Of a stretch of 64,000 nt of DNA, positions 34,944 to 59,102 are shown in pieces (positions within the stretch are counted from its first letter, which is position 1; each line of letters begins with the position of its first letter). Under the pieces are notes generated by a model. The model saw nothing but the letters and a program-made list of their open reading frames with translations, ran no database searches and had not been told where the DNA came from. Source of the stretch: an uncultured Lachnospiraceae bacterium. GTDB taxonomy: Bacteria > Bacillota > Clostridia > Lachnospirales > Lachnospiraceae. The position numbers were made by a program, and so were the translations under genes. The stretch covers positions 62,001-126,000 of the forward strand of contig CADANF010000001.1 of the NCBI GenBank assembly GCA_902789175.1, in the 5' to 3' direction.

Positions 34944-34985
34944 ACCTCCAGATAGAAAAAAATAATCTATTTGGAGGTTTTATTT
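34944..34985 (+). terminator. Hairpin that includes the rfbB ribosome binding site
   Basis: The arms 34944-34956 and 34966-34978 pair over 13 bases with one mismatch and are followed by TTTATTT. The right arm contains GGAGG of rfbB. RNA from the rfb promoter would start near 34950 and lack half of the left arm, while read-through RNA would form the full hairpin. Confidence 0.6.
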
Positions 34986-36020: not shown

Positions 36021-36043
36021 GAATTAATATCCGGAGGCAGTCG

Positions 36044-36967: not shown

Positions 36968-36969
36968 TT

Positions 36970-37854: not shown

Positions 37855-37862
37855 TTTTAATT

Positions 37863-37897
37863 ACTACTGTATTTAACAGACTGTTAGATACAGTAGT
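37863..37897 (+). promoter_or_regulatory. Intra-operon hairpin between rfbA and rfbC
   Basis: The arms 37863-37878 and 37882-37897 pair over 16 bases with one wobble around a 3-base loop. Only a weak T-rich sequence follows, so RNA processing, 3'-end protection or partial termination all fit. Confidence 0.6.
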
Positions 37898-37924
37898 TTG
37901 TTATGTGAGATAGGAGATATAAAA

Positions 37925-39807: not shown

Positions 39808-39818
39808 GGTGAAATATT

Positions 39819-41150: not shown

Positions 41151-41160
41151 CGGAGTATTT

Positions 41161-43288: not shown

Positions 43289-43303
43289 GAGGAGAGTTTT
43301 TAT

Positions 43304-44215: not shown

Positions 44216-44226
44216 GGGTAGATGAT

Positions 44227-45471
44227 ATGAAAGATTTAAAGAAGATAAATATCAATTCGCTGATAATACTTATTTTTCTGATATTTGATGTCAGATTTTT
44301 TTATATGATAAATCTTCCAAAATACTTTGGAGGAGATGGCACTAATAAGATGTTACTGTCTCTCTTTGGTATTTGTGTATTTATTTATTATGTTATAAGA
44401 CATAAATTTGCTGCAGGAGAATTTGGAGTATATATCTTAGGGTTATATATCATACTTGCAGCGGTTTCTGTTCATTCACTTATAAAATTAGATTATAAGA
44501 TAACTCAGGTGGTATGGCCGTTGTTTCCTTTTATAAATCTTCTCTATTATTTTATATTAAGAGAGATATTAAATAATAAGAGGAATTTCAGATTCTTTCT
44601 TAGAATGGCTGAAATTTTCTGGAGCATACTTGTTCTTTTATTTTTGGCTCAGAGATTCATGTATCTTAGAAGTCAAACGATTTTTATGAAACTCGGAGTT
44701 ATGCTTCCGGAATATTATTTCAGACATCCAGAGCTGGGATTTAGAATATATAATGTGTTTGAAGGATTCAACAGGATTTTTGTGATCCTTACAGCATATA
44801 TTGTTTTTAAGAATCATTTTAGAAAATGTAAATTTGAGATGGTTTATACATTGCTCGGACTTTTAGCAATCCTTCTTGTAGATGGTTCAAGATTTTATAT
44901 AGCCACTGTTGTACTGGTGATAATAATAGAATTTCTTTTGGTAAATAAAGAGAGATTAAGATTCGGAGCTTTTTTACTTCTTATTTCAGGACTTTTGCTT
45001 GGGGCAGCAGTTGGATTTAAAATATATAAATCTGTAAATAATGATATTTCCGAAGATACAGGTTCTTCTTATGCAAGAACCGGAGCAATAGATTATTATC
45101 TGTCTGAAATGAAAGGAACAACTCTCTTCTTTGGATTTGGAATTGCAAATCCTGATGAAGGAGATCCTTTATATAAAGTAATACACGGTCCGGACGATAT
45201 ATATCATTTTGATGATATAGGCCTTGTGGGAACTTTTGCCAAATTTGGAATTTTCTCTGTAATATGGTATATATTATTTTTGCTGAAAATGATTCATTTA
45301 ACTATTAATACTGATAAGAAAAGAAAAGCTCTTAGTATTGGGATCACAGTTATGGCAGCAGTTGCGCTTATAACTCAGTCATATCTTGATCCGCAAAGGA
45401 TTCTTGCTATGCTTTTTAGTATGATACTCCTGGAAATTAATCTAAGGTCACCGGAAGTTATCAGTAATTAA
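44227..45471 (+). CDS. O-antigen/capsule polymerase-like membrane protein (Wzy)
   Basis: 414 residues from ATG 44227, with AGGGTAG upstream; an in-frame ATG at 44206 overlaps the preceding gene. About ten hydrophobic segments and a large outside loop before the last helices (RTGAIDYYLSEMKGTTLFFG, then GPDDIYHFDDIGLVG) match the Wzy/O-antigen ligase layout. Low sequence conservation makes the call depend on topology and on the neighbouring flippase. Confidence 0.78.
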   Translation: MKDLKKININSLIILIFLIFDVRFFYMINLPKYFGGDGTNKMLLSLFGICVFIYYVIRHKFAAGEFGVYILGLYIILAAVSVHSLIKLDYKITQVVWPLFPFINLLYYFILREILNNKRNFRFFLRMAEIFWSILVLLFLAQRFMYLRSQTIFMKLGVMLPEYYFRHPELGFRIYNVFEGFNRIFVILTAYIVFKNHFRKCKFEMVYTLLGLLAILLVDGSRFYIATVVLVIIIEFLLVNKERLRFGAFLLLISGLLLGAAVGFKIYKSVNNDISEDTGSSYARTGAIDYYLSEMKGTTLFFGFGIANPDEGDPLYKVIHGPDDIYHFDDIGLVGTFAKFGIFSVIWYILFLLKMIHLTINTDKKRKALSIGITVMAAVALITQSYLDPQRILAMLFSMILLEINLRSPEVISN

Positions 45472-45495
45472 AATATTTTGATCAAGGACAAGAAT

Positions 45496-46935
45496 ATGAA
45501 GACTAGATCCGTAAAACGTAATGCATTACTAAATATTATCAAACAGATATGTGCTATCATTTTTCCGATGATAACATTTCCTTATGCCTTCAGGGTATTA
45601 GGTGTAAATAATTATGGTAAATATACCTTCAGCTGGAATGTAGTAAATTATATATCCTATCTTGCAGCGGCAGGTATCCTTAGATATGCAGTAAGAGAGT
45701 GCGCGAGAGTAAGAGATGAAAAAGATAAATTATCAAAACTTATAAATGAATTATATTCTATCAATATAATTACAACAGCTATATCATTTCTTATACTTTT
45801 TGCTTTGCTTATATTTGTTGATCATTTTCATGACTATGCACCATTTATTCTGGTGCTTTCAGTTTCGGTGCTTTTTACAACGATTGGAACAGATTGGATC
45901 AATAGTGCTTTTGAAGATTATTTCTTTATAACTATCAGATATATAATAGCTCAGACTGTAGCTTTAGGACTTCTTTTTATACTTGTAAGAAACAGAGATG
46001 ATGTACTTGGTTATTCTATCGTTAGTGTGACGGGTATTATTATAGCCAATTTTTTTAACTATTTTCATATTAGAAAAAACCTGGGTATAATTCCTAAATT
46101 TGTCATATCAAAGGATATGAAGAAGCATATTAAGCCGATAATGTATTTCTTTGCCTGCTCAATAGCAACATTTATTTACATTAATTCGGATATATCGATA
46201 ATTAAACTGTTTTTTCCATATGATGATAGTCACAATGGTTTGTATGGAGCTGCAACCAGATTTTATCAGCTTATCAAAGAAATGATAAATGCGGCATTTG
46301 TAGTTATCATTCCCAGAATATCAAATGATCTTGTAAATGATAAAGAAAAGGCAAATTTAAAATTAAGTAAAGTACTTAATTTCACTATCCTTCTTACTGT
46401 GCCATGTTCTGTAGGACTTTTTATGGTAAGGGAGGATCTGATCATGATCTTCTCGGGAGCAGAATTTGCGGGCGCAACTACAGCCCTTGGAATACTGGCC
46501 TTTTCGCTGGCGCCGGCGTTGCTTGCTAATTTTTATATAAATATAGTAATGATACCTTTCAAAATGGAAAAGAAGGTTACCATCGCAACACTTATAAGTG
46601 CAGCAGTCAATATAGGACTTAATTTTGTGCTTATTCCATTATATGCAGAAAATGCAGCAGCCTTTACTACACTTCTTGCTGAAACATCTCTTGCATTAAT
46701 GGGTTTATATTATGCAAGAAAGATTAAGATAGGTAATGTTTCAAAATCTCTTGTTACAGCTTTGACAGGTAGTGGTTTGATATTTGTTATATGTTTTAGT
46801 ATTAATAATCTTATCAAAAACCGCGTATTCAATTTTGTACTGGATGTAGTATTAAGCGGCATAGCTTATGTTGTAGTTTTTGCTATATTTTATAATAAAG
46901 ATATAAAAGAATTCTTAAAAAAGAGGAAGAGATAA
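45496..46935 (+). CDS. Polysaccharide flippase (Wzx, MATE-like fold)
   Basis: 479 residues from ATG 45496 (AAGGA seven bases upstream; TTG 45478 is less likely). Twelve to fourteen hydrophobic segments; NIIKQICAIIFPMITFPYAF and GKYTFSWNVVNYISYLAAAG near the start are typical of Wzx/RfbX. It should move the lipid-linked repeat unit outward. The last base of its TAA stop codon is the first base of the licD ATG, which couples the two. Confidence 0.92.
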   Translation: MKTRSVKRNALLNIIKQICAIIFPMITFPYAFRVLGVNNYGKYTFSWNVVNYISYLAAAGILRYAVRECARVRDEKDKLSKLINELYSINIITTAISFLILFALLIFVDHFHDYAPFILVLSVSVLFTTIGTDWINSAFEDYFFITIRYIIAQTVALGLLFILVRNRDDVLGYSIVSVTGIIIANFFNYFHIRKNLGIIPKFVISKDMKKHIKPIMYFFACSIATFIYINSDISIIKLFFPYDDSHNGLYGAATRFYQLIKEMINAAFVVIIPRISNDLVNDKEKANLKLSKVLNFTILLTVPCSVGLFMVREDLIMIFSGAEFAGATTALGILAFSLAPALLANFYINIVMIPFKMEKKVTIATLISAAVNIGLNFVLIPLYAENAAAFTTLLAETSLALMGLYYARKIKIGNVSKSLVTALTGSGLIFVICFSINNLIKNRVFNFVLDVVLSGIAYVVVFAIFYNKDIKEFLKKRKR

Positions 46936-47750
46936 TGGAAAAGAAGGTTTACAACACAGGAGAGACAGAAGAGGAACTTAAAGCTGAGTATAATTATGAG
47001 GGCAGTAATCTTAGAAAAGCTCAGGATCGTATGCTTGAATTACTTATCTTCCTTGATAAGGTTTGTACTGAAAATGACATTGATTATTTTATAGGATATG
47101 GAACACTCTTAGGAGCAGTAAGACATGGCGGATTTATCCCATGGGATGATGATACAGATGTAGTAATGTCACCTGCCGGATTAAAAAAATTCAGAAAAAT
47201 AGTCAATAGTGGTAAATATGATTACGTTGTACAGGATCATTCGATTGATAAAGGCTTCGTAAGACATTATAATGTATTAAGAGACCTTAATTCCTGTTAC
47301 GTTAAGGATGAATTTATCCATAATCAGCGTAAGTATAAAGGGGTTCAGGTTGATATATTCCCTTGGGGATTTGGGGTTAAGAAGAAACCAAGAGCTTTTA
47401 TAAAGAGACTTCAGGTTATCAACGAATGGCATGCATTAGGAAAACATCCGATCATTTCATCAATGATCTATGGCATATCTAAATACTTTTTTATTCCAGT
47501 ATTTAAATTCTTTAGTTTATTTTCATCAAAGGAATACCTTTATCTTGGATATGAAAATGAATGGGATTTAAAATATAAGTATGATGACATTTTCCCTTTA
47601 GGCAGGATTGAATTTGAAGGACATCAGTTAAAATGTCCTCATAATCCAAAAGGAATGCTTTTAGTTGACTATGGTTCAAACTATAATGATCTTCCTCCTA
47701 AGGAGTCTAGAAATCATCATAGTGTTGATACGATAGAGTTTTATAATTAA
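46935..47750 (+). CDS. licD: LicD-family phosphocholine transferase
   Basis: 271 residues. The LicD signature is FIGYGTLLGAVRHGGFIPWD with the following DDTDVVM, the acidic nucleotidyltransferase-like site. LicD moves phosphocholine from CDP-choline to a glycan sugar. It is last of the assembly genes and overlaps wzx by one base. The first choline-binding-type protein gene follows after 13 bases, so donor attachment and reader are coupled. Confidence 0.92.
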   Translation: MEKKVYNTGETEEELKAEYNYEGSNLRKAQDRMLELLIFLDKVCTENDIDYFIGYGTLLGAVRHGGFIPWDDDTDVVMSPAGLKKFRKIVNSGKYDYVVQDHSIDKGFVRHYNVLRDLNSCYVKDEFIHNQRKYKGVQVDIFPWGFGVKKKPRAFIKRLQVINEWHALGKHPIISSMIYGISKYFFIPVFKFFSLFSSKEYLYLGYENEWDLKYKYDDIFPLGRIEFEGHQLKCPHNPKGMLLVDYGSNYNDLPPKESRNHHSVDTIEFYN

Positions 47751-47763
47751 ATACGGAGGTGCT

Positions 47764-49056
47764 ATGAGGGTTAGTAAAAAACTATTTTTATTGTGTGGGT
47801 TTATTACAGTATCTCTATTTTCTTTTAACAAGGTTGAAGCTGCTGATGGTGGAGCAGCTGATACGGTGGCTACCAGCAGCGATGCAGAACAAAAAGATGA
47901 TAGCGGATTTCTGGATGATAATGGCAAAGATGAGCCAGGTAATGAAGATAAGAAAGAAGACATCATTACAGGCTGGATCAAATGTAGTGACAATACCTGG
48001 ATCTATCATGATGATAAGGGCGAAAATGTAACTGGCTGGAAATATATCGATAACTACTGGTATTTCTTTAATGAAAAAGGGATCATGGCAGTAGGATGGA
48101 ATAAGGTAAAAGATAACTGGTATTATCATTATCCATCTGGGAAAATGGCTGTTTCATGGATTGAGGTTAATGATAATTATTTTTATCTTGCCCCATCAGG
48201 AAAGATGCAGACCGGGTGGCATAAGATAAACAATAACTGGTATTATTTTAGAAACAGTGGAACAATGGTAACTGGCTGGCAGAAAATAAAAAAGGAATGG
48301 TACTATTTTGCTATGTCAGGAAGAATGCAGACAGATTGGCAGTATATAGGAAAAGACTGGTATCATTTCAGAACAAGCGGAAAAATGGATACGGGCTGGT
48401 TAAAGCTTAGTAATGACTGGTATTATTTTTATCCATCCGGAAAGATGGTAACCGGCTGGCTTCAGCTGGGAAGTGACTGGTATTTCTTATATGAGTCAGG
48501 AAGAATGATGCATGATGCATGGAACGGTGATTATTATCTTCAGAGTAATGGCAGAATGGCAAAAGATATGTGGATCGGAAATTACCATGTGGATAAAAAT
48601 GGACGTAAGGACAATACCTGGGAAAAGTATAATGCAGATAATATGCATAACAAAGCTAAAGGTTACGATAGTGACACATCATATCTTATACTTGTAAACC
48701 GTTCAACCCACAGGGTTGGAATTTATAAGAAGTCTAATGGATCATGGACTAATATTAAATATCTTGAGTGTTCTGATGGCAGTGATAAGACACCAACTAT
48801 TGAAGGAACCTTTACAACTAAGGCTAAAGGTATTTACTTTGACCATGATGATGCACGACTCTGGTATTATACCCAGTTTTGTGGTGATTATCTTTTCCAT
48901 TCAGTATTATATGCACAGGAACCATCACCTGACACAGTTATTGATGGAAGACTTGGAAAAGCACTTTCTCTTGGATGTGTAAGACTGTCTCTTTCAGAAG
49001 CTAAATGGATCTATGATAATATTCCTTACGGAACTAAAGTAGTTGTATATCATTAA
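47764..49056 (+). CDS. Choline-binding-repeat L,D-transpeptidase
   Basis: 430 residues. A signal peptide (about 1-26, ending VEAAD) and an acidic linker lead into ten to eleven 20-residue repeats of the type GWxxxxxxWYYFxxSGxMxT (about 70-290), the choline-binding (CW_binding_1) pattern. The C-terminal domain (about 305-430) is a YkuD L,D-transpeptidase: YLILVNRSTHRVGIYK, His in LFHSVLY and the catalytic Cys in LSLGCVRLS. It would be held on phosphocholine and make 3-3 peptidoglycan cross-links or attach proteins. It is probably expressed with licD, being 13 bases behind it. Confidence 0.92.
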   Translation: MRVSKKLFLLCGFITVSLFSFNKVEAADGGAADTVATSSDAEQKDDSGFLDDNGKDEPGNEDKKEDIITGWIKCSDNTWIYHDDKGENVTGWKYIDNYWYFFNEKGIMAVGWNKVKDNWYYHYPSGKMAVSWIEVNDNYFYLAPSGKMQTGWHKINNNWYYFRNSGTMVTGWQKIKKEWYYFAMSGRMQTDWQYIGKDWYHFRTSGKMDTGWLKLSNDWYYFYPSGKMVTGWLQLGSDWYFLYESGRMMHDAWNGDYYLQSNGRMAKDMWIGNYHVDKNGRKDNTWEKYNADNMHNKAKGYDSDTSYLILVNRSTHRVGIYKKSNGSWTNIKYLECSDGSDKTPTIEGTFTTKAKGIYFDHDDARLWYYTQFCGDYLFHSVLYAQEPSPDTVIDGRLGKALSLGCVRLSLSEAKWIYDNIPYGTKVVVYH

Positions 49057-49060
49057 GTTA

Positions 49061-49107
49061 ACATAAAAATGGACCACAGTCCCGGGGGCTGTGGTCCATT
49101 TTTATGT
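49061..49107. terminator. Strong terminator of the polysaccharide-licD operon
   Basis: The 19-base arms (49061-49079 and 49089-49107), rich in ATGGACCACAG, form a nearly perfect stem around CCCGGGGG. A- and T-rich ends let it act on either strand. Confidence 0.92.
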
Positions 49108-49203
49108 AAAGGTATTATGTAAAGAATAGATGAACAGTTTGTGAAGAGATAGATTAAATGTCTTAATTCACTGCGTTATCACATATAATTGTCGGACATG
49201 GGG

Positions 49204-49230
49204 TATAATTATAAATAGGTGCAAACCTAT
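49204..49230 (+). promoter_or_regulatory. Possible promoter and 5' hairpin of the second repeat-protein gene
   Basis: A perfect TATAAT (49204-49209; another at 49184-49189) without a clear -35 box is followed by ATAGGT-GCAA-ACCTAT (49215-49230), a hairpin that would sit at the very start of the transcript. A T run follows at about 49238. Weak evidence. Confidence 0.35.
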
Positions 49231-49264
49231 AGTGTATTGTTTTTTAGTATTTAGGAGGTGTTTT

Positions 49265-52156
49265 ATGAGGAGAAAGAGAATACTCTTGTTAGGAATCGCT
49301 CTTTCTGGCTCGCTTGTTTTCAGCTGTGGCTTTAAAGGAGCGATAAAAGATGTTCGAGCGGAAGATTCGGGAATTGTAAACACAGATGATGATCAGCAGG
49401 AGGATGATCAGCAGGATGAGCTTCTGAATGAAGGTGAAGGGGACCTTGGTTCAGGTGGTGAAGGTGAAGTAAAACAGGACCAGGATATTGAAGGAGGGGG
49501 AAATCAAAACCAGGAAATTGATGGAGATATAGGTCAGGGGCAGGAAGTCCAGGGCAATGTAGAAAATAATCAGGAGATTCAGGAAGATTTAAATCAGGGA
49601 ACAGATATAAAAAACGGTAATGTCCAGGAACTGAAATTATCTAGGGGTATCGATTATTCTGAAATATGGAAACATATTGAAAGAAAATATGATGAAGATA
49701 CACAGAGAGATATCCTTTATCTTTTTGATGATAATGGAGATCCGGTTACTGAGATCGGGTTCCATGGCAAAGTTGAAAATAAGCCGGATGACTGTCTGGT
49801 TTATGTAATTGATGAAACAGGAAGACTTGCTACAGGATGGTTAGAAGTAGATGGTTCCACTTACTATTTTGATGAGTGGGAAGGGGAAATGCGTAGAGGT
49901 GTTTTCGATGGTTATAATTCTGTAACAAGAAGATATGATAAGTTCGTAGCAAACTATGAAGGAATTGTTGCTACAAAACCAGGCTGGAATAATGTTACTC
50001 TATTTAAAGGAACGGATATAAGATATATTGACGGAGAAGATCAGGAAGTTGAAGTCGAGGATAAGAGATGGTTTTATCTTTATAAAGATCATACTTTATA
50101 TACAGGCTGGCATGTAATTGATGGAAAGAAATATTATTTTGTTCCGGAAATGTGTCAGAATGAATGGGTGATCGATAATGATGGTAATAAATACTATTTT
50201 GATGAAAAAGGTCAGATAACTAATGATCCGTTGGTTTTAGGAGAAGATAATCCTTGGGGTGTAATTTATCCTGATAGTGATGGCTTTAAGGATATTGAGG
50301 AAGCTCTTAAAGTTGTAAAACAGGATGGAAAAGATTATGTGTTTGATGATGGTATCCTTCTTGTTGATACATTTGTTGAAATTGATGATAAGGAAGTATA
50401 TGTAAAGCCAGATGGTACTATCAATTATGGATGGTACAAAAACAGAAATGGAAAATGGATGTATTCTTATAAAGATGGTTCTCTTCCAGAGAATGGATGG
50501 GAGACTGTAGGAGCATTTAAGTATTATTTCATTCATGGTGAAGCCCTTTCAGGCGGAACATATCGCTTCTCAAAAGAAGATGATTCTTTAATTGACTATG
50601 GCGGCGATGATTTCTACATTTCAAGCTTATATGATTACTCTGATACGTATGAGCTTACTATTAGAAAAAATGCTATTATTGCCAATGGTTTTGTAAAAGA
50701 ATCAGATATTTACAGTGATTCAGATTCAGATCGACTTCTTTATTATGATAAAGGTGAAAGATATTACGGATGGATTAACAAAGGTGATGACTGGTATTTT
50801 ATCGAAGATTCAAGGGCTTTATGTAATAGATATGAATATTTATCTGATTATAATAAAGCGGATGAAGAAGATGAAGAAGAATTAACTAAAAATATAAAAT
50901 ATTCAATTGAAGAAGACAGATGGCATAATTACGGATTTGACAGTACCGGAAAGCTTATCGTCAATAAATGGTATAAATATACTAATTATGGAAGAACAGA
51001 ATGGTTCTATGCTGATGAGACTGGAAAAGGAATGACTGGATGGCTTAAATGGAAAGATCAGTGGTATTATATTTCTAATGGAATAATGCTTACAGATTCC
51101 TATACTCCAGATAATTATTATGTTGATAAAGATGGTAAATGGGATTGGAACTGGGATAAATATACTGAATTTACAACCAATGAATATGGATTAACAGTTC
51201 TTAAGGATAGAGAAGAACAAAGAGGCTGGTTAACAGGTCCTGGTGGAAAATTCTATTATGTAGCTGAAGGATACTATTTCTTAGAAAAATATGGTTATGG
51301 ATTTGAAGATAATCGCAATTTCGGAGTTTATAAGAATGGTTATTATGTAATTCCTGATGAAGATGGTGAAACATCACATGTTTACTGGTTCTCAAAGAAA
51401 GGCCTTTCTGTAAAGAAACCTGTAACTAAAGGATGGAAATCTATCGGTAATGGCAATTGGATATATGCTGGCGATGATGGTATAGCATATACAGGCTGGG
51501 TTGGTGACTACTATGTTGAAAACGGCTATATGATAAGAGATCGCTTCCTTGAAGTTACTTATGATGAAGAAAAGAAGGAAAATGAATACCACACTATATG
51601 GAATATTCCAAGAGAATTAGATGAAGAATCTAAGGTAAATTATATGTTTATCGATAATAAGGGTAAAGCTGTTAAGGGTAAATATACAGTGCCTATGTAT
51701 AATTTTGGTTATTTAACTGCTAAGAGAGTTAGGTATGATTATGATAATACCGACTATGTGGTATTTACAGATGAAAAGACTGGCTATTTAATAAAAGATA
51801 AAGGTTTTTATACTGACGCAGCTGGTGATCTATATTATTTATTTAGTTCAGGAATAACCATAGGAGCTAGAAAAGGACAGATAATTGAGCAGAGTTATGA
51901 TGAAAAAACTAAAACTGAAATGATCCTCGTTTTCCAAAATGCTGGAAAGCTTGCAACTGGCTGGGTACAAGCTGGGGAAATAAAAGGATACCTTAATAAA
52001 GACGCAACAGTTTATGATGGTATGCTTGAAGATGGAGGAAATAAGTATTTCTTTGATAGGGGACGACTTATCACAGACTCATTTATTGCTGGAACAAAAG
52101 CACTTTATGCAGGAGTAGATGGAAGAATTGCTGAAAAGAATCCATTTAAAAAATAA
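49265..52156 (+). CDS. Large secreted choline-binding-repeat protein
   Basis: 963 residues from ATG 49265, behind TTAGGAGG. A signal peptide (about 1-36, ending VRAED) leads into an acidic Gln/Glu/Gly/Asn-rich stretch with repeated Q-x-x-Q-(D/E)-(I/V) units (about 40-118). After that the protein is almost entirely degenerate 20-residue wall-binding repeats (TGWLEVDGSTYYF, GWHVIDGKKYYF, TGWLKWKDQWYYI, TGWVGDYYVENGYM). No enzyme domain was seen. It is probably a structural or adhesive surface protein. It has its own terminator and encodes no LPXTG. Confidence 0.9.
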   Translation: MRRKRILLLGIALSGSLVFSCGFKGAIKDVRAEDSGIVNTDDDQQEDDQQDELLNEGEGDLGSGGEGEVKQDQDIEGGGNQNQEIDGDIGQGQEVQGNVENNQEIQEDLNQGTDIKNGNVQELKLSRGIDYSEIWKHIERKYDEDTQRDILYLFDDNGDPVTEIGFHGKVENKPDDCLVYVIDETGRLATGWLEVDGSTYYFDEWEGEMRRGVFDGYNSVTRRYDKFVANYEGIVATKPGWNNVTLFKGTDIRYIDGEDQEVEVEDKRWFYLYKDHTLYTGWHVIDGKKYYFVPEMCQNEWVIDNDGNKYYFDEKGQITNDPLVLGEDNPWGVIYPDSDGFKDIEEALKVVKQDGKDYVFDDGILLVDTFVEIDDKEVYVKPDGTINYGWYKNRNGKWMYSYKDGSLPENGWETVGAFKYYFIHGEALSGGTYRFSKEDDSLIDYGGDDFYISSLYDYSDTYELTIRKNAIIANGFVKESDIYSDSDSDRLLYYDKGERYYGWINKGDDWYFIEDSRALCNRYEYLSDYNKADEEDEEELTKNIKYSIEEDRWHNYGFDSTGKLIVNKWYKYTNYGRTEWFYADETGKGMTGWLKWKDQWYYISNGIMLTDSYTPDNYYVDKDGKWDWNWDKYTEFTTNEYGLTVLKDREEQRGWLTGPGGKFYYVAEGYYFLEKYGYGFEDNRNFGVYKNGYYVIPDEDGETSHVYWFSKKGLSVKKPVTKGWKSIGNGNWIYAGDDGIAYTGWVGDYYVENGYMIRDRFLEVTYDEEKKENEYHTIWNIPRELDEESKVNYMFIDNKGKAVKGKYTVPMYNFGYLTAKRVRYDYDNTDYVVFTDEKTGYLIKDKGFYTDAAGDLYYLFSSGITIGARKGQIIEQSYDEKTKTEMILVFQNAGKLATGWVQAGEIKGYLNKDATVYDGMLEDGGNKYFFDRGRLITDSFIAGTKALYAGVDGRIAEKNPFKK

Positions 52157-52181
52157 AATATAATAGATAAAATATAGTTTT

Positions 52182-52220
52182 GGGGAGCGTATCGATGTGT
52201 TTTGATACGCTCCCCTTTTT
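52182..52220 (+). terminator. Terminator behind the second repeat-protein gene
   Basis: GGGGAGCGTATC (52182-52193) pairs perfectly with GATACGCTCCCC (52204-52215), then TTTTT. Confidence 0.92.
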
Positions 52221-52258
52221 GTATTTAAAAATTAGGAAAAATGGTTGTTATCTTACTT

Positions 52259-52274
52259 GTTTTTTATAAAAAAC
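52259..52274. promoter_or_regulatory. 16-base AT-rich palindrome before the third repeat-protein gene
   Basis: GTTTTTTATAAAAAAC is a perfect palindrome about 45 bases before the ribosome site. It may overlap promoter boxes (TTGTTT and TAAAAT at 16 bases), but AT richness makes chance symmetry possible. Confidence 0.3.
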
Positions 52275-52320
52275 ATATTAAAATAATTGGAGTAAATATT
52301 AATTAACGGAGGTAAGGTTA

Positions 52321-54570
52321 ATGAGGAAAAAAAATTTGCTTCGAGCAGCATTTCTTCTCACAGGTACAGTCGCTGTATCAGGTATGAACTTCGGGAAGAT
52401 CAATTCTGTTAGAGCGGATGAGATCAGTGATTCAACTATTGTAGCAACAGGAACGGATGCTTCTTTACAGCTTTCAGAGGAAGAGACTGAAGAGGAAAAA
52501 GAGACTGTTGATACAGAAGAAGTAACTTCAGAAGAGGTTGCTTCAGGGGCGGTTGCTTCTGAAGAAGTAGTAACAGAAACTGTTGATAGGGAAGAAACAG
52601 AAACGGTTACTTATGATGCTGCACTTGCAACAACACATACAGCAAAGCTTCCATATAAGGAAAATAATATCTATTATATGGCTGATTCAAAAGGAAACAA
52701 AGTAACAAAGGTTGGATTTGTTGAAGATAAGTATGGATATTTATATTATGTAACAGATTCTACAGGAAAACTTGCTACAGGTTTTAGGACAATAAATGGA
52801 AAGAAATATTATTTCAGACCAGGTGATACTTATAAGGGAAGAGTTGCCACAGACGTTTTTTCTACTGGTTCTAATTCTTATGTAGCTGATTCTGATGGGA
52901 AAATTGTAACTACTGTTGGATGGTATAAGTATGAACATGAGATATCTTGGAGTTATACTTCAGAAGAATGGGTGTATGTTGCAGATAATACAGGTAAATT
53001 AAAAACAGGCTGGCATAAGCAGAATGGAGTTAATTATTACCTTGACCCTGTTATGCAAAAGGGAGTTTTTGAGGACAATTCAAAACTTTATGTTGCTGAT
53101 CAGTATGGTCATGTTGTAACTGCCAAAGGATGGAAGAAGGTTCAGACTTCCAGTGAGGATGCAAAGTGGTTCTATTTTAATGATGATAAATGGTCTCTTG
53201 TTCAGGGATGGAAGAAGATAAATGGTAAATGGTATTATTTCTGTCCTGAAATGGCAACATCAACAATTATTTATGATAAAGATAAATATTATTGTTTTGA
53301 TAAGGATGGTCATTTAACAAGTGGTCCTTATGTTACAGCAGATGGTGAAATCACTATTGTTGATAAGAAAGGTGTTGTTAAGGATAAAGGATGGTTCAAG
53401 TCAAATGGTAAATGGTATTATCTTGATGGTGGAAGACTTGTTACTGATTCTGTAAGAACAATCGATGGTAAGACATATTATTTCAGACCAGATGGTTCAA
53501 TGAATAAGGGATGGTATCACTCTGTTGAGGATGATGGATCAAACGGATGGTATTTATCAGATGCTACTGGACAGATCCAGAAAGATGGCTGGTTAAAATC
53601 AGCTGGTGCTTCTTATTACTTTGAAAAAGGACATACTTTAACTAGTGGAACTTATTATTTTAAAGATAATAAGCGCACATATTCATCATCATCATATGAC
53701 AAATCCTATTACTTTGATGATGAGGGAAAAGTTGCTAACGGATGGACAAAATATGGAGGCAGCTGGCGTTATTATAAAGAAGGTCAGAAATATACAGGAT
53801 GGATCAAATCAGGAAGTGATTATTATTACTTTAAAGATTCAGAAATGGAAAGAAATACTATTATTACAATAGATGGTAATAAATATGCCTTTAAGTCTGA
53901 TGGAAAGATGGCAAAAGGCTGGTATAAATATAGCGGATATGGTGAGGCTGTTTGGTATTACTTTGATAATAATGGTAAAGCCCATGAGGGATGGATGGGA
54001 GACTATTATTTTAAAGAAGGCAAAATGCTTACTAATTCTGTTTTATATCAGTTTAAGGATGAAAAAGGAAGAATAAATTATGAAAATGGCTCTTCTTCTT
54101 CAGATGATGCTGTTGGTGCTTATATTATAGGTGAAAATGGTAAATATATTAAAGGTAGATCAACTTTAACTGCATATGATGGTTTTACTGTAAAAATTTG
54201 GACTGATCCAAAAACCGGACTTGCTGTTAAAGACAAGTGGGTAAAAGAGAATGGAAAGTGGTACTATTACAAATTTGGTGTTTGTATTACTATGCCATCA
54301 TATTATGTAGATGAAAACTATTATCATATGGAAATCAATGATAAAGATTATTTCTTTAATAGAGATGGTTCATTAGTAACAGGCTGGTTTAAATATAATA
54401 ATACATGGGGATATGCTGATGAGAATGGAAATCTCTATAATGGCTGGCTCAAGTACAATGGATCATGGTATTATTTTGATGAGGGAATAATGCTTGTAAA
54501 TGAGTATGTTCCTGATAGTGCAGGATGGTTTGCAGGAGCAGATGGTAAATGCACAATTATAAAGTTTTAA
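52321..54570 (+). CDS. Secreted choline-binding-repeat protein
   Basis: 749 residues. Signal peptide (about 1-36, ending VRADE), then a Thr/Glu/Val-rich linker (about 45-105). The rest is wall-binding repeats (ATGFRTINGKKYYF, KTGWHKQNGVNYYL, KGWFKSNGKWYYL, NGWLKYNGSWYYF), interrupted by less regular stretches. No catalytic domain is visible. It resembles the 963-residue neighbour in layout and signal peptide, suggesting duplication. CGGAGGTAAGG precedes the ATG; transcription looks separate, with a terminator on each side. Confidence 0.9.
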   Translation: MRKKNLLRAAFLLTGTVAVSGMNFGKINSVRADEISDSTIVATGTDASLQLSEEETEEEKETVDTEEVTSEEVASGAVASEEVVTETVDREETETVTYDAALATTHTAKLPYKENNIYYMADSKGNKVTKVGFVEDKYGYLYYVTDSTGKLATGFRTINGKKYYFRPGDTYKGRVATDVFSTGSNSYVADSDGKIVTTVGWYKYEHEISWSYTSEEWVYVADNTGKLKTGWHKQNGVNYYLDPVMQKGVFEDNSKLYVADQYGHVVTAKGWKKVQTSSEDAKWFYFNDDKWSLVQGWKKINGKWYYFCPEMATSTIIYDKDKYYCFDKDGHLTSGPYVTADGEITIVDKKGVVKDKGWFKSNGKWYYLDGGRLVTDSVRTIDGKTYYFRPDGSMNKGWYHSVEDDGSNGWYLSDATGQIQKDGWLKSAGASYYFEKGHTLTSGTYYFKDNKRTYSSSSYDKSYYFDDEGKVANGWTKYGGSWRYYKEGQKYTGWIKSGSDYYYFKDSEMERNTIITIDGNKYAFKSDGKMAKGWYKYSGYGEAVWYYFDNNGKAHEGWMGDYYFKEGKMLTNSVLYQFKDEKGRINYENGSSSSDDAVGAYIIGENGKYIKGRSTLTAYDGFTVKIWTDPKTGLAVKDKWVKENGKWYYYKFGVCITMPSYYVDENYYHMEINDKDYFFNRDGSLVTGWFKYNNTWGYADENGNLYNGWLKYNGSWYYFDEGIMLVNEYVPDSAGWFAGADGKCTIIKF

Positions 54571-54602
54571 GTAATATAACTGAATAAGTATCAGGTATTG
54601 AT

Positions 54603-54654
54603 GTCGATCTCTGGATGCTAGAAAAATTCTAATATTCAGAGGTCGGCTTTTTTT
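54603..54654 (+). terminator. Terminator behind the third repeat-protein gene
   Basis: GTCGATCTCTG (54603-54613) pairs, with wobbles, to CAGAGGTCGGC (54637-54647). An inner TAGAA/TTCTA stem extends it; TTTTTTT follows. Confidence 0.85.
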
Positions 54655-54698
54655 AGAAATTTTTTTGGGAGGTTTTTGTTTAGAAGGATAAAATTCAC

Positions 54699-54739
54699 TT
54701 GAGTTCAGTACAAAAAAGTGCTATATTGTTCATGAACAA
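54699..54739 (+). promoter_or_regulatory. Promoter and palindromic operator of the choline-activation operon
   Basis: TTGAGT (54699-54704), a 17-base spacer and TATATT (54722-54727). A perfect 14-base palindrome, TTGTTCATGAACAA (54726-54739), overlaps the -10 box and expected start of transcription. The first gene encodes an N-terminal helix-turn-helix, so self-repression is an obvious hypothesis. Confidence 0.65.
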
Positions 54740-54751
54740 AAGGAGGTTTCA

Positions 54752-56500
54752 ATGAATATACAGCAAGCAGATATACTTAAAGCATTATATGAAAAAGATT
54801 ACTCAACTCAAAGAGAGATTGCATCCCATGTAGGTCATGCCTTAGGTCTGGTGAATAAATCTTTAAGATTATTAGAAGAAGATAAATATATTCACATGAT
54901 GAAGATTACTGATAAGGGAAGGGAATATATAGATGGTTTTAAACCAAAGAATGCAATAATACTTGCGGCCGGCTTTGGTATGCGTATGGTTCCGATCAAT
55001 CATGAATGTCCTAAAGCTTTTCTTAAGGTAAAGGGAGAAATTCTCATTGAACGACTTATAAATCAGCTTCATGAAGCAGGGATTAAAAAGATATATGTAG
55101 TGGTTGGATTTATGAAAGAACAGTTTGATTATCTTATTGATAAATACAATGTTGAACTGATAGTAAATTCAGATTACGTTTTAAAGAATAATCTTTATTC
55201 ACTTAAGAAAGCTGAAAAATATATAGAAAATAGTTATATTGTTCCTTCAGATGTATGGTTTGAAGAAAATCCATTTGGAAAAAATGAAGCATATTCATGG
55301 TATATGATCACGGATAAAAAAGACAGTCAGAGTGATGTTAAACTTGCAAGAAGCTATGAACTTGTAAAAATTCCAAGAAATATTCAGGGTAATACCATGG
55401 TTGGACTTTCGTTTATTAGTAAAAAGGATGCGCCAACTCTTAAAAAGAGAATGAAAGATCTTTCAAAGTCAGTTTATCATGATAATGATTTCTGGGAAGA
55501 AGCCTTATATGATGAAAATGGAAAAATGTTCACGAAGGCAAAAGTTATCCAGCAGGATAAAGTAAATGAGATCAATACTTTTGAACAGCTGAGACAGTTA
55601 GATGATAAGTCTAAACAGCTTCAGTCAGAAGCAATACTTGTACTTGCGGATGCATTTAAGTGTGATGTTAATGATATTAAGAATATCGAAGTCCTTAAGA
55701 AGGGTATGACTAACAGGTCCTTCCTTTTTAACTATGAAGGTAGTAAATATATCATGAGGATTCCTGGAGAAGGAACAGATCAACTTATAAATAGAAAAGA
55801 AGAAGCAGAAGTATATAAAACTATTGCAGGTAAAGGATTCTGTGATGATCCTGTTTATATCAATCCTGAAAATGGATATAAGGTAACTAAATTTCTTATG
55901 GGTGTAAGAACCTGTAATGATAGAAAGGTTGAAGATTTACAGAAGTGCTTTAAATTACTTAAAAAGCTTCACAATATGAATCTTAAAGTTGATCATGAAT
56001 TTAATCTTCTTAAAGAAATCAACTTTTATGAATCATTATGGAATGGGGAGCCTTCTTCTTATCCTGACTATAAGAAGACAAAGGAACATGTTCTAGAGCT
56101 GATAAATTATGTAGATGGTCTGGATAAAAAGAAATGTCTTACTCATATAGATGCAAACTGTGATAACTTCCTTTTCTATAAAGAAAATGGAGAAGAGAAG
56201 CTTCAGCTTACTGACTGGGAATATGCAGGTATGCAGGATCCGGATCTGGATATTGCGATGTTTGCTATCTACAGCATGTATGAAAAGAGCATGGTTGATT
56301 TTATCATAGATATTTATTATGAAGATAAATGCCCTGAAGAGATCAGAACAAAGATTTATTGCTATGTAGCCATTGCCGGACTTTTATGGTCCAACTGGTG
56401 TGAATATAAGGCTCATCTTGGAATAGAATTTGGAGAATACAGCCTAAGACAATATCGATATGCCAAAGACTATTATACATATGCGAAAGAGAGGATGTAG
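54752..56500 (+). CDS. Fusion: winged helix, LicC-like cytidylyltransferase and LicA-like choline kinase
   Basis: 582 residues. About 1-65 form a MarR-like winged helix (STQREIASHVGHALGLVNKS, then KITDKGREYI). About 67-290 form a nucleotidyltransferase (AIILAAGFGMRMVPINHECP, KVKGEILIERLINQLHEAGI), the LicC family that makes CDP-choline. About 300-582 form a choline kinase: MTNRSFLFNYEGSKYIMRIP, the Brenner motif LTHIDANCDNFLF (near 464) and the metal site LTDWEYAGMQDPDLDIAMF. It joins choline phosphorylation, activation and possible gene control in one chain. AAAGGAGG precedes the ATG. The next gene follows after three bases. Confidence 0.9.
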   Translation: MNIQQADILKALYEKDYSTQREIASHVGHALGLVNKSLRLLEEDKYIHMMKITDKGREYIDGFKPKNAIILAAGFGMRMVPINHECPKAFLKVKGEILIERLINQLHEAGIKKIYVVVGFMKEQFDYLIDKYNVELIVNSDYVLKNNLYSLKKAEKYIENSYIVPSDVWFEENPFGKNEAYSWYMITDKKDSQSDVKLARSYELVKIPRNIQGNTMVGLSFISKKDAPTLKKRMKDLSKSVYHDNDFWEEALYDENGKMFTKAKVIQQDKVNEINTFEQLRQLDDKSKQLQSEAILVLADAFKCDVNDIKNIEVLKKGMTNRSFLFNYEGSKYIMRIPGEGTDQLINRKEEAEVYKTIAGKGFCDDPVYINPENGYKVTKFLMGVRTCNDRKVEDLQKCFKLLKKLHNMNLKVDHEFNLLKEINFYESLWNGEPSSYPDYKKTKEHVLELINYVDGLDKKKCLTHIDANCDNFLFYKENGEEKLQLTDWEYAGMQDPDLDIAMFAIYSMYEKSMVDFIIDIYYEDKCPEEIRTKIYCYVAIAGLLWSNWCEYKAHLGIEFGEYSLRQYRYAKDYYTYAKERM

Positions 56501-56503
56501 GGC

Positions 56504-57382
56504 ATGAAAGTCGATAATGCGGTAATACTTGCGGCTGGAACAGCCAGCAGATTTGCACCCTTATCTTATGAAAAGCCTAAGGCTTTAGCTGAGGTAAAAG
56601 GAGAAGTCCTTATTGAAAGACAGATAAGACAGCTACATGAAGCTGGTATAAATGAAGTTTATGTAGTAACTGGTTATAAATCAGAGCTTTTCTTATACTT
56701 GGAAAAGAAGTGTAATGTAAAGTTGATACATAATCCTTATTACAAAACAAGAAATAATAATTCAAGTATTAAGGCTGTAGAAGATATTTTAAAGAATACT
56801 TATATCTGTTGTGCAGATAATTATTTTAATGACAATCCATTTAATAGTGAGGAAGAATGCGCATTTTATTCGGCTCTTTATTCAGATGGAAGAACTAATG
56901 AATGGTGTATAACTACAGATGAGGATGGATTCATATCAAAGGTAACTATTGGTGGCATTTCTTCCTGGTATATGTTAGGTCATGTATTCTGGGATGAGGA
57001 ATTCAGCAATAAATTTACCAAGATCCTGGATAAAGTTTATGATTTGCCGGAAACAGCAGATAAGTATTGGGAAGATATATTTATTGAAAATATCGATAAA
57101 TTAAAGATGAAGATGAAGAAATATCCTTCAGATATAATCTTTGAATTTGACACTATAGATGAATTAAGAGAATTCGATGATTCATATGTAAAGAATACCC
57201 GTTCTTCAATACTAAAGAGTATTGCGGCGCGACTCAATGTGTCAGAGTGTGATATGGATGGCTTTAAATCCTTCAATGATAAGAATAATGAGGCCTCCGG
57301 TTTTACTTTTAATTTAAAAGGTAATATTTATTCATATAAATATGCTGATAAAAAAATAGTTAAGATCACAGAAAAGGAGTAA
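56504..57382 (+). CDS. Second LicC-like nucleotidyltransferase with a truncated kinase stub
   Basis: 292 residues. About 1-230 form a nucleotidyltransferase (AVILAAGTASRFAPLSYEKP, EVKGEVLIERQIRQLHEAGI) clearly related to the same domain in the upstream fusion. The last 60 residues (SSILKSIAARLNVSECDMDG, then FTFNLKGNIYSYKYADKKIV) align by eye with the first 50-60 residues of the upstream kinase domain, but the protein stops before any catalytic motif. It is thus a duplicate that kept only the first strands of the kinase. It may activate a different phospho-alcohol, or partner the first enzyme. Confidence 0.85.
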   Translation: MKVDNAVILAAGTASRFAPLSYEKPKALAEVKGEVLIERQIRQLHEAGINEVYVVTGYKSELFLYLEKKCNVKLIHNPYYKTRNNNSSIKAVEDILKNTYICCADNYFNDNPFNSEEECAFYSALYSDGRTNEWCITTDEDGFISKVTIGGISSWYMLGHVFWDEEFSNKFTKILDKVYDLPETADKYWEDIFIENIDKLKMKMKKYPSDIIFEFDTIDELREFDDSYVKNTRSSILKSIAARLNVSECDMDGFKSFNDKNNEASGFTFNLKGNIYSYKYADKKIVKITEKE

Positions 57383-57389
57383 CTTAAAA

Positions 57390-58937
57390 ATGATTGAAAG
57401 AATTAAAAAAAGCCAGGTGGATTGGATAATCACATTAGTCCCACTGGCCATCATCGTAGGTTTAGCATTATTATTCTTTATTTTCCCGGATAAATCTAAC
57501 GCTGTAGTTAGTCAGGTCAGATTTTTCTTTGGAGATACTCTTGGATCTTATTATTTGATCATAGGACTTGGACTTTTCCTTGTTTCATTATTTATCTCAT
57601 TTAGCAAGTATGGTGACATTGTACTCGGGGATCCTGATGAGAAGCCTAAATATGGTTTTTTCAAATGGGGTTCAATGATGTTTACTTGTGGACTTGCAGC
57701 GGACATACTCTTTTATTCATTTTCAGAATGGGTAATGTATGCAGCAGAACCACATATTGCAGAAATGGGTTCAATTCAGGAATGGGCTGGAGTTTTCCCT
57801 CTTTTCCACTGGAGTTTTATCCCATGGTCATTCTATCTTGTACTTGCTGTAGCATTTGGATTTATGCTTCATGTAAGAAAGAGAGATAGACAGAAGTTTT
57901 CAGAAGCTTGTCGTCCACTTCTTGGAAAGTATACAGATGGTATCATAGGCAGGATCATCGATCTTCTTGCGGTATTTGCTCTTATAGCTGGAACAGCTAC
58001 AACTTTCTCAGTAGCAACACCACTTATGGCAGCTGCTATTGAAGCTCTTGTTGGAATAAAAGTTAATAGAACTATGATCACTATCGTGATCCTTTTTGTA
58101 ACATGTATCATTTATACATATTCTCTTCTTCACGGTATCAAGGGTATTTCACATCTTGCAAATGCATGCATGTATTTATTCTTTGGATTATTATTATTTG
58201 TTCTTTTCTTTGGTGGAGAGACAAAATATATAATTGAAACTGGTGTTGAATCACTCGGTAAACTTCTTGGCAATTTCTTTGAATTGTCAACATATTCTGA
58301 TCCTCTTAGAAAGAATGGCTTCCCACAGGCATGGACAATCTATTATTGGGCATACTGGATGGTTTGGTGTGTTGCCGCTCCTTTCTTTATCGGACAGATC
58401 TCGAAGGGAAGAACAGTAAGACAGACAGTACTTGGTGGTTATGTATTCGGTGTTGGTTCAACTCTTGTAAGTTTCATCATTCTTGGTAATTACTCAATGG
58501 GTAAACATATGCATGGCGCGGCTGATTTTGTTGCTATGTATAATAATGGTGATAACGTATATGATATCATCATTGCTATGATGAAGACACTTCCTATAGT
58601 TCCTGTAGTTCTTGTATGGCTTATATGTACAATGATCGCTTTCTATGCTACATCATTTGACTCAATAGCTTTCATCGCATCATGCTACAGCTATAGAAAA
58701 CTTGATGAAGGAAAGAATCCTAATAAACTTGTTGAGCTTATGTGGTGCCTTCTTCTTATCCTTCTTCCAATAGCTCTTCTTTTCTCAGAGAGCTCAATGA
58801 CAAATATCCAGGCTGTAAGTATAATAGCCGCCTTCCCACTAGCTTTTGTCCTTGTACTTATCGCTATCAGCTTTATAAAAGATGGAAAGAAGTATATGGG
58901 TGAGCTTTCTTCAGTAAACACTAAGAAAGAGAAATAA
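57390..58937 (+). CDS. BCCT-family transporter (probably choline uptake)
   Basis: 515 residues with about twelve membrane helices. Family segments include WAYWMVWCVAAPFFIGQISK followed by GRTVRQTVLGG, the BCCT signature, and MMFTCGLAADILFYSFSEW with aromatic residues of the substrate site. BCCT carriers take up choline, betaine or carnitine. Its position eight bases behind the LicC-like gene points to choline. It ends with a good terminator. LicB, the usual choline permease of lic operons, is a different family, so this would be a replacement (inference). Confidence 0.9.
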   Translation: MIERIKKSQVDWIITLVPLAIIVGLALLFFIFPDKSNAVVSQVRFFFGDTLGSYYLIIGLGLFLVSLFISFSKYGDIVLGDPDEKPKYGFFKWGSMMFTCGLAADILFYSFSEWVMYAAEPHIAEMGSIQEWAGVFPLFHWSFIPWSFYLVLAVAFGFMLHVRKRDRQKFSEACRPLLGKYTDGIIGRIIDLLAVFALIAGTATTFSVATPLMAAAIEALVGIKVNRTMITIVILFVTCIIYTYSLLHGIKGISHLANACMYLFFGLLLFVLFFGGETKYIIETGVESLGKLLGNFFELSTYSDPLRKNGFPQAWTIYYWAYWMVWCVAAPFFIGQISKGRTVRQTVLGGYVFGVGSTLVSFIILGNYSMGKHMHGAADFVAMYNNGDNVYDIIIAMMKTLPIVPVVLVWLICTMIAFYATSFDSIAFIASCYSYRKLDEGKNPNKLVELMWCLLLILLPIALLFSESSMTNIQAVSIIAAFPLAFVLVLIAISFIKDGKKYMGELSSVNTKKEK

Positions 58938-59074: not shown

Positions 59075-59102
59075 TTGACAAAATCAAAACCTCCTATATA
59101 AT
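59075..59102 (+). promoter_or_regulatory. Predicted promoter of the giant lectin-like gene
   Basis: Perfect TTGACA (59075-59080), a 16-base spacer and a perfect TATAAT (59097-59102). Confidence 0.75.

What the first reader, a model, noticed from the sequence alone, without database searches (positions are those of the whole stretch)
46935..58937. A complete-looking phosphocholine surface system: uptake, activation, attachment and readers in 12 kb
The sequence shows, in order, licD, three secreted proteins with choline-binding-type GW/WYYF repeats, a cytidylyltransferase-choline kinase fusion, a second LicC-like protein and a BCCT transporter. Known lic biology (pneumococcus, Haemophilus) gives each a role, but there the transporter is LicB and the genes are separate. 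Here the decorating enzyme and three candidate readers sit behind a rhamnose polysaccharide locus in what looks like an anaerobic gut or rumen clostridium. Inference: the glycan from 35-47 kb carries phosphocholine and holds the three proteins on the surface.
Basis: partly seen in the sequence, partly recalled or inferred. Interest (0 to 1): 0.82.

Follow-up and report, generated by a model that had tools for sequence, protein, structure and literature searches.

The report
Self-regulated phosphocholine-decoration gene cluster
A gut-type Clostridia bacterium carries a compact gene set that probably imports choline, activates it and puts phosphocholine on a surface sugar chain that can hold choline-binding proteins; its central enzyme is fused to a DNA-binding domain that appears to control its own gene, a design that recurs in many gut bacteria.

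Summary
In order stand LicD, three secreted repeat proteins (the first with an L,D-transpeptidase domain, the second with weak repeats), a fusion, a second LicC and a BCCT. The fusion has three domains: winged HTH, LicC-like, LicA-like. LicD, BCCT and the fusion are each single in the genome. The kinase keeps the aromatic choline pocket of pneumococcal LicA and the BCCT shares BetT's Asp, so choline is the likely substrate. The fusion's LicC-like domain does not look like a CDP-choline maker: 85 of 107 such domains lack the TNEW Trp; the second LicC keeps it. A separate good LicC was found in 11 of 11 family genomes with the Trp-less fusion and 0 of 10 with a close Trp-bearing one, though two divergent Trp-bearing fusions also have one. 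A palindrome, TTGTTCATGAACAA, between promoter and ribosome-binding site recurs upstream of Trp-less fusions, so the fusion is probably an autoregulator. The module recurs in Lachnospiraceae, Oscillospiraceae, Erysipelotrichaceae, Coriobacteriia, lactobacilli and Treponema. Which glycan carries phosphocholine, and whether the repeat proteins bind it, is inference. New variant of the known Lic pathway.

The parts
34971..38533 (+). rmlB, rmlD, rmlA, rmlC (dTDP-rhamnose synthesis), start of the candidate acceptor-glycan locus
   Evidence: Pfam
38596..46935 (+). DUF1972 protein, three glycosyltransferases, Stealth phosphotransferase (42287-43288), weakly Wzy-like protein (44206-45471), MOP flippase (45478-46935)
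   Evidence: Pfam; the only PDB sequence match of the flippase at E<=0.001 is a teichoic acid flippase (9xzn, 1.4e-24)
46935..47750 (+). LicD, the only one in the genome; its start overlaps the flippase stop codon by one base
47764..49056 (+). CBP1: signal-peptide-like start (by eye), choline-binding repeats, C-terminal L,D-transpeptidase
49232..52156 (+). CBP2: secreted by the look of its start, weak choline-binding-type repeats
52321..54570 (+). CBP3: secreted by the look of its start, choline-binding-type repeats
54699..54727 (+). promoter-like site (TTGAGT-17-TATATT, TG before the second hexamer) of the fusion gene
   Evidence: consensus match only, 77 such sites in the 12.9 kb scanned against 60 in shuffles
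54726..54739 (.). perfect palindrome TTGTTCATGAACAA between promoter-like site and ribosome-binding site: predicted operator
54752..56500 (+). HTH-LicC*-LicA triple fusion: winged HTH about 1-62, altered cytidylyltransferase-like domain about 63-288, choline kinase about 300-582
56504..57382 (+). LicC2: likely phosphocholine cytidylyltransferase with a C-terminal tail like a kinase N-lobe
57390..58937 (+). BCCT transporter, the only one in the genome; likely choline importer

Best explanation
This is a Lic-type phosphocholine decoration pathway with its own importer and its own regulator. The BCCT brings in choline. The kinase domain of the HTH-LicC*-LicA protein makes phosphocholine. LicC2, not the cytidylyltransferase-like domain of the fusion, makes most of the CDP-choline. 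LicD, encoded at the end of the glycan operon, moves phosphocholine onto that glycan before the MOP flippase exports it. Secreted repeat proteins, here a cell-wall L,D-transpeptidase and CBP3 and elsewhere in the genome a GH25 and a GH5 protein, dock on the choline. The HTH binds the palindrome between promoter and start codon and represses its own operon; the altered cytidylyltransferase-like domain is a plausible sensor of CDP-choline, phosphocholine or CTP. Shown by computation: anatomy, active-site conservation, single copies in the genome, co-occurrence, the second-LicC association, the conserved palindrome. Inferred: the chemistry in vivo, the acceptor, the docking, that the HTH binds the palindrome, the direction of regulation and the sensed ligand.
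For: Kinase: LicA Thr29, Asp176, Tyr197, Trp251, Trp254 and Tyr268 (PMC4364537 passages) are each kept in 82-84 of 84 fusions of the window's type. Fold: AF2 model mean pLDDT 88.5, best PDB matches LicA 4r7b and LicC 1jyk. LicC*: no residue at the TNEW Trp column in 85 of 107 fusion LicC domains (one more is cut off there), 58 of them with the one string MRKNPDS--FWEEN, the window included; 75 of 91 separate CT-domain proteins keep Trp. Second LicC: 11 of 11 genomes with a Trp-less fusion, 0 of 10 with a close Trp-bearing one. Palindrome: 60 of 70 Trp-less fusion starts score >=10 bits against 21 of 1118 other ORFs, 3 of 71 BCCT and 3 of 78 repeat-protein genes; held out, mean 25.6 of 37 against 0.9 of 37 shuffled. 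BCCT Asp as in E. coli BetT, not in CaiT. Repeat-rich genomes 21 of 26 against 11 of 94.
Against: Two divergent Trp-bearing fusions (G022, G109), left out, also have a separate LicC, so the rule is not strict; in 2 of the 11 Trp-less genomes (G018, G090) the separate LicC has Tyr for Trp. Five of 60 Trp-less named loci have no LicC2 next to them. Five of 26 genomes with LicC+LicA have fewer than 10 repeat matches (G047 and G098 with the full module), and 11 repeat-rich genomes showed no LicC+LicA at E<=1e-20. LicA Glu213 is Tyr here. Window LicC2 has Cys and Glu where LicC has Asp105 and Asp192. TacF's phosphocholine arginines R230 and R333 are not kept in the flippase. DddT, the nearest solved BCCT, also has the Asp. 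LicD lies in only 16 of 73 Trp-less named loci. LicC* keeps Arg, Lys and metal-ligand positions, so it may still be active.
Confidence: 0.7

Rival explanations
1. Two substrates: the kinase is relaxed, LicC2 activates phosphocholine and LicC* activates a second phospho-amino-alcohol such as phosphoethanolamine, so that the glycan carries two decorations.
For: LicC* keeps Arg13, Lys23, the Asp102 position and Glu211 (numbering) and forms one strongly supported clade with a fixed substitution pattern, which looks like a new specificity rather than decay.
Against: No second LicD and no second LicA-like match to the fusion in the genome; the kinase pocket is that of a choline enzyme; phosphonate supply is not evident (PEP mutase only 28.2 bits against a cut-off of 31.5).
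Confidence: 0.2
2. CDP-choline feeds membrane phosphatidylcholine, as recalled for LicCA of Treponema denticola, and not a glycan.
For: LicCA fusions serve that path in Treponema (recalled, no paper read); the only NCBIfam match of the LicD is Mf1, a diacylglycerol cholinephosphotransferase, though far below its cut-off (80.6 of 225 bits).
Against: Only two PF01066 proteins in the genome: PgsA (177.8 bits, over its cut-off) and a PssA-like protein (65.4 bits, under its cut-off of 107) beside a protein that looks like Psd (by eye). LicD sits at the end of the glycan operon.
Confidence: 0.06
3. Independent neighbours: an osmolyte carrier, a LicD with another donor, and repeat proteins that bind glucan or another wall polymer.
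For: LicD is present in 53 of 94 family genomes without both LicC and LicA; the repeat family includes glucan binders.
Against: Fusion, LicC2 and BCCT are 3 and 7 bases apart and travel together in 50 of 60 loci; this is the only BCCT in the genome.
Confidence: 0.05

Closest known systems
Lic-1 phosphocholine pathway (licABCD; Streptococcus pneumoniae, Haemophilus influenzae)
   Same: choline kinase, phosphocholine cytidylyltransferase and LicD in one region; choline-binding proteins as in pneumococcus
   Different: BCCT in the place of LicB; kinase fused to an HTH and to an altered LicC; a second LicC; a conserved palindrome at the fusion gene
Pneumococcal choline-binding proteins (LytA, LytC, PspA, PspC)
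   Same: Choline_bind_1/3 repeats; the genome also has a GH25 protein with repeats, the domain pairing of LytC
   Different: CBP1 carries an L,D-transpeptidase; in CBP2 and CBP3 Pfam found only repeats (CBP2 also a sub-cut-off DUF7131)
TacF teichoic-acid flippase
   Same: the only PDB sequence match of the flippase encoded just before LicD (1.4e-24)
   Different: its phosphocholine-contacting arginines R230 and R333 are not conserved here
PntC 2-aminoethylphosphonate cytidylyltransferases
   Same: LicC-like fold; occur as fusion proteins; Glu at the Asp192 position
   Different: no PEP mutase over the cut-off in the genome; LicC2 keeps the TNEW Trp and the Tyr

Membership tests
Lic-1 phosphocholine pathway | choline kinase (LicA) with its catalytic and aromatic-pocket residues | tested here: met
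   Thr29, Asp176, Asn181, Asp194, Glu196, Tyr197, Trp251, Trp254, Tyr268 positions all invariant in 15 aligned fusions (residues); Glu213 is Tyr
Lic-1 phosphocholine pathway | phosphocholine cytidylyltransferase (LicC) active site, by LicC2 | tested here: met
   134 bits to 1jyk; SRKNCDNEWYWEED against TRKNDDNEWYWDED: 10 of 14 positions equal, T12 to S, D105 to C, D192 to E differ in the substrate or phosphate loop region. Numbers follow D105/D192/E216 of PMC6697681 (passages); that the Trp and Tyr line the choline box is recalled
Lic-1 phosphocholine pathway | the same, by the LicC-like domain of the fusion | tested here: not met
   TNEW Trp absent, Tyr190 to Phe, Asp105 to Pro, Asp218 to Asn, the T/S of the GXG(T/S)R loop to Met
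Lic-1 phosphocholine pathway | LicB-type choline permease in the cluster | tested here: not met
   a BCCT stands in its place; whether a LicB-like gene lies elsewhere in the genome was not searched
Lic-1 phosphocholine pathway | LicD phosphotransferase | tested here: met
   PF04991 104.7 bits; the donor it uses is not testable here
Choline BCCT carriers (BetT type) | Asp in the stretch where G153D makes BetP choline-specific | tested here: met
   same column as an Asp of E. coli BetT, Val in CaiT; G153D BetP called choline-specific in PMC6400524 (one passage). That the column is BetP 153 is recalled, BetP was not aligned; DddT has the Asp too
Choline-binding proteins | repeats over the Pfam cut-off | tested here: met
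   Choline_bind_3: CBP1 162, CBP3 130, CBP2 35 bits against a cut-off of 27
Choline-binding proteins | binding to and elution by choline | not testable with these tools
   bench test needed
TacF choline gatekeeper | R230 and R333 for the phosphocholine phosphate | tested here: not met
   gap and Ser in the alignment to 9xzn; R250 and R269 kept (residue offset counted by hand from the printed alignment)
CDP-choline route to phosphatidylcholine | a cholinephosphotransferase of the CDP-OH-P family | tested here: not met
   two PF01066 proteins, PgsA and a PssA-like one
Autoregulated wHTH operon | conserved palindrome at the promoter of the HTH gene | tested here: met
   binding itself not testable here

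The most novel reading that the evidence does not exclude
HTH-LicC*-LicA is a trigger enzyme: a choline kinase whose ancestral cytidylyltransferase domain has been retired from catalysis and turned into the ligand-sensing domain of a DNA-binding repressor. It reads CDP-choline or phosphocholine and shuts its own operon through a palindrome that overlaps the promoter or, in many relatives, the start codon itself. The lost catalytic step was refilled at least twice, once by canonical LicC and once by a truncated LicC-LicA.
Probability: 0.35. Interest if true: 0.78.

Novelty: new variant of a known kind. Interest (0 to 1): 0.62.

Why it matters
Phosphocholine on bacteria is known mainly from respiratory pathogens, where it steers adhesion, C-reactive protein and natural anti-phosphocholine antibodies (general knowledge). 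The module was found here in records named Fusicatenibacter saccharivorans, Blautia, Dorea, Faecalibacterium, lactobacilli and gut Treponema. If it works as read, ordinary gut commensals can wear the same mark, scavenge choline for it and switch it by a single self-regulating protein. It gives a marker (fusion + second LicC + BCCT) and a predicted operator that can be tested directly, and a clean case of an enzyme domain kept in fixed altered form after its catalytic job seems to have moved to another protein.

Tried and rejected
Rejected: phosphonate (AEP) decoration, since no PEP mutase over the cut-off was found. Rejected as unlikely: phosphatidylcholine synthesis. Rejected: that the flippase is a TacF-type choline gatekeeper by residues. 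Rejected: that the palindrome marks a genome-wide regulon; the exact site occurs once in 2.75 Mb, and sites with up to 2 mismatches number 20 against 13 for the reversed control; repeat-protein genes lack it (3 of 78 score >=10 bits). The second, start-codon-centred copy, seen in 42 of 67 Trp-less fusions and 1 of 17 Trp-bearing ones, is absent in the window (score -1.4). A regex for L,D-transpeptidase motifs in repeat proteins of relatives matched nothing, so the CBP1 architecture was not shown to be conserved; the window was not in that call, so the regex had no positive control.

Counting limits. Family genomes are related, so Fisher p values are optimistic; the genome lists for one search were typed. 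Of the 26 genomes with LicC+LicA, one search took 21 and left out five with divergent or split genes (G020, G022, G042, G093, G109); G022 and G109 are exceptions to the rule and G020 and G093 also have a separate LicC-like protein. In one search matches of 51-99 bits were set aside as other nucleotidyltransferases by score alone. (E<=1e-20) missed separate LicC2 copies (G081 shows one match only), which is why one search repeated the question with a LicC2 profile. The matrix was trained on most of the fusions it scores and its seed was chosen after seeing the data, hence the held-out test and the seed-free 8-mer count. Literature: searches, seen as capped listings; no listing showed an HTH-LicC-LicA protein or a BCCT in a lic locus, and the library holds only open-licence papers. 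Passages or an outline were read of PMC10434233, PMC4364537, PMC6697681, PMC13385700, PMC3578728, PMC6400524 and PMC4929436; none was read whole.
Full report
What is there. The window is bases 62001-126000 of contig 1 of a 2.75 Mb, 78-contig, 99.6% complete genome. Its family is Lachnospiraceae by inference: the same-family genome G118 has a contig of 167,977 bases, the length of a Fusicatenibacter saccharivorans contig found by name. At 46935-58937 stand, all on the + strand, LicD, three repeat proteins with secretion-type starts, a 582-residue fusion, a 292-residue LicC-like protein and a 515-residue BCCT. The fusion begins with a winged HTH, then a nucleotidyltransferase domain, then a choline-kinase domain. 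CBP1 ends in a YkuD L,D-transpeptidase domain. CBP2 is only just over the repeat cut-off. LicD overlaps the stop codon of the flippase of the upstream rhamnose-type glycan locus, and CBP1 follows 13 bases after LicD; LicC2 and BCCT follow after 3 and 7 bases. The glycan locus has rmlBDAC, a DUF1972 protein, three glycosyltransferases, a Stealth phosphotransferase, a weakly Wzy-like protein and a MOP flippase.

Is it one system? The genome has one LicD, one BCCT and one LicC-LicA fusion with its neighbour LicC2; a third hit (2.7e-4, 250-residue frame) was not examined. Repeat proteins also lie on contigs 5, 6, 17 and 32, among them GH5, GH25 and CAP domain proteins; the GH25 pairing is that of pneumococcal LytC (passages of PMC4929436). 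In 120 genomes of the family, 32 matched the fusion at E<=1e-20, 74 had Choline_bind_3 and 78 had LicD. Of the 32, I kept 26 with both a LicC-like and a LicA-like region and dropped six with only one. Genomes with 10 or more repeat matches are 21 of 26 with both and 11 of 94 without (Fisher p = 3.4e-11); LicD is present in 25 of 26 and 53 of 94. Exceptions: five genomes with both but few repeats, and 11 repeat-rich genomes without.

Choline as substrate. Pneumococcal LicA holds choline with Tyr197, Trp251, Trp254, Tyr268 and Val178, Glu213 at the rim, and Thr29 and Asp176 (PMC4364537 passages). The four aromatic residues, Thr29 and Asp176 are invariant in 15 aligned fusions and each kept in 82-84 of 84 fusions of the window's type; Val178 is Asn in the window and Val in most relatives, and Glu213 is Tyr. 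The BCCT carries an Asp in the column of an Asp of E. coli BetT, where CaiT has Val. A BetP with G153D is called choline-specific (one passage of PMC6400524). That the columns agree is recalled, since BetP itself was not aligned. The nearest solved BCCT, DddT, has the Asp too, so this is support and not proof.

The fusion is probably not the CDP-choline maker. At 14 active-site positions pneumococcal LicC reads TRKNDDNEWYWDED. Of 107 fusion LicC domains in the loci examined, 86 have no letter in the Trp column; one of these (L141) is cut off there, which leaves 85. Fifty-eight read exactly MRKNPDS--FWEEN, the window among them; 17 keep Trp and four have other letters. Of 91 separate CT-domain proteins, 75 keep Trp, three have Tyr and one Leu; the other 12 look like RmlA-type proteins or are cut by contig ends, by eye. 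The window LicC2 reads SRKNCDNEWYWEED and scores 134 bits to 1jyk, against 97 for the fusion. Residue numbers follow the D105, D192 and E216 named in PMC6697681 (passages); the passages speak of an aromatic box for choline without naming its residues, so that this Trp and Tyr belong to it is recalled. A tree of 86 LicC rows puts the Trp-less fusion domains in one clade (100/99, 24 rows with one Treponema fusion of the same kind), canonical solo LicC in another (95/93, with four further solo proteins), and the window LicC2 with Trp-bearing LicC-LicA fusions at moderate support (89/85). Its tail of about 60 residues resembles the start of the kinase domain, so it looks like a truncated LicC-LicA. 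Profile search of 21 of the 26 genomes: all 11 with a Trp-less fusion have a separate LicC of 250 bits or more besides the fusion domain (145-165 bits); all 10 with a close Trp-bearing fusion have that fusion as the only match over 100 bits. Against a strict rule: two divergent Trp-bearing fusions outside that search (G022, G109) also have a separate LicC, in G018 and G090 the separate LicC has Tyr for Trp, and five of 60 named Trp-less loci have no LicC2 next door (their whole genomes were not searched). The AF2 model of the fusion is good (mean pLDDT 88.5, pTM 0.67) and matches LicA and LicC structures, so the altered domain is folded; parts of its phosphate loop (75-79, 81-83) are poorly predicted.

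A predicted operator. In upstream regions of Trp-less fusions the 8-mer GTTCACGA or its complement occurs in 30 of 74 (no seed). A palindromic matrix finds sites over 7 bits in 64 of 74 against a mean of 11 in shuffles, 48 of them starting 21-40 bases before the start codon. In the window it is a perfect palindrome, TTGTTCATGAACAA at 54726-54739, ending 12 bases before the ATG and overlapping a promoter-like -10 by two bases. It is unique in the genome as an exact match. Of 56 sites of 15 bits or more in 1.9 Mb of fetched DNA, 47 lie at fusion starts. Scores of 10 bits or more: 60 of 70 Trp-less fusions, 1 of 17 Trp-bearing, 3 of 71 BCCT, 3 of 78 repeat-protein, 2 of 23 LicD, 3 of 92 solo LicC and 21 of 1118 other ORFs. 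With the matrix trained on one half and tested on the other (ten splits, window left out), a mean of 25.6 of 37 held-out regions score against 0.9 of 37 shuffled, and the window site scores 16.2-17.5 bits. In 42 of 67 Trp-less fusions, though not in the window, a second copy is centred on the start codon. The simplest reading is autorepression by the fused HTH, local to this operon.

Spread. The genome-contig scan kept the best 80 of 535 relatives: 73 Trp-less, five Trp-bearing, two others. Of 60 Trp-less loci with at least 2.5 kb downstream, 55 have a LicC2 next, 53 a BCCT, 50 both. Records include Lachnospiraceae, Oscillospiraceae, Erysipelotrichaceae, Coriobacteriia, lactobacilli, Streptococcus porci and Treponema; many are metagenome bins whose labels may be wrong. 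LicD lies within the fetched locus in 16 of 73 and repeat proteins in 16 of 73, so the core module is [fusion][LicC2][BCCT] and LicD and the repeat proteins join it case by case.

Against and open. The acceptor is inferred from operon order alone. The flippase has a teichoic acid flippase as its only PDB sequence match, but the phosphocholine arginines of TacF are missing. LicC* keeps several catalytic positions and may act on another substrate. A published survey of phosphocholine pathways in 26 species that bear it (PMC10434233: outline, abstract and passages) has no occurrence of Clostridi-, Firmicutes or fusion in its main text; searches listed no paper on this architecture.

Verdict. A real, ordered and widespread system, known in kind (Lic pathway with choline-binding proteins), with three unusual parts: a BCCT importer, a paired LicC with a fixed loss of the TNEW Trp in the fused copy, and a self-regulating HTH-enzyme fusion with a conserved predicted operator.

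Noticed in passing
window 42287-43288: Stealth-family phosphotransferase (CR1, CR2, CR3) in the glycan locus, which suggests sugar-phosphate links in the glycan.
   Followed up: no
window 47764-49056: A choline-binding-type repeat protein that is also an L,D-transpeptidase: a cross-linking enzyme possibly held on phosphocholine.
   Followed up: partly
window 59144-64000: Large ORF running off the window, with lectin-like stretches (by eye, not scanned) and TEEPSTEESS repeats, behind a perfect -35/-10 promoter-like site at 59075-59102.
   Followed up: no
window 52182-52215: Strong terminator-like hairpin between CBP2 and CBP3, so the repeat genes may be separate transcripts.
   Followed up: no
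L149 (G096 C8) 6215-7312: A 365-residue HTH-LicC protein with a kinase-like tail between repeat proteins, apparently a truncated Trp-bearing fusion.
   Followed up: partly
L131, 14434: A 17.9-bit copy of the palindrome in front of a LicD gene, hinting that LicD joins the regulon in some species.
   Followed up: no
L158 (G098 C3) 4266-6939: A second LicD + HTH-LicC-LicA pair in a genome that already has the module and is not among the 74 with a Choline_bind_3 match.
   Followed up: no
G105, G114, G027: Genomes rich in choline-binding-type repeats without a match to the fusion at E<=1e-20: another choline route or another ligand.
   Followed up: no
L135 10001-13290: A Trp-bearing fusion directly followed by a BCCT with no LicC2 in the locus: the combination expected if a Trp-bearing fusion needs no partner.
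   Followed up: no
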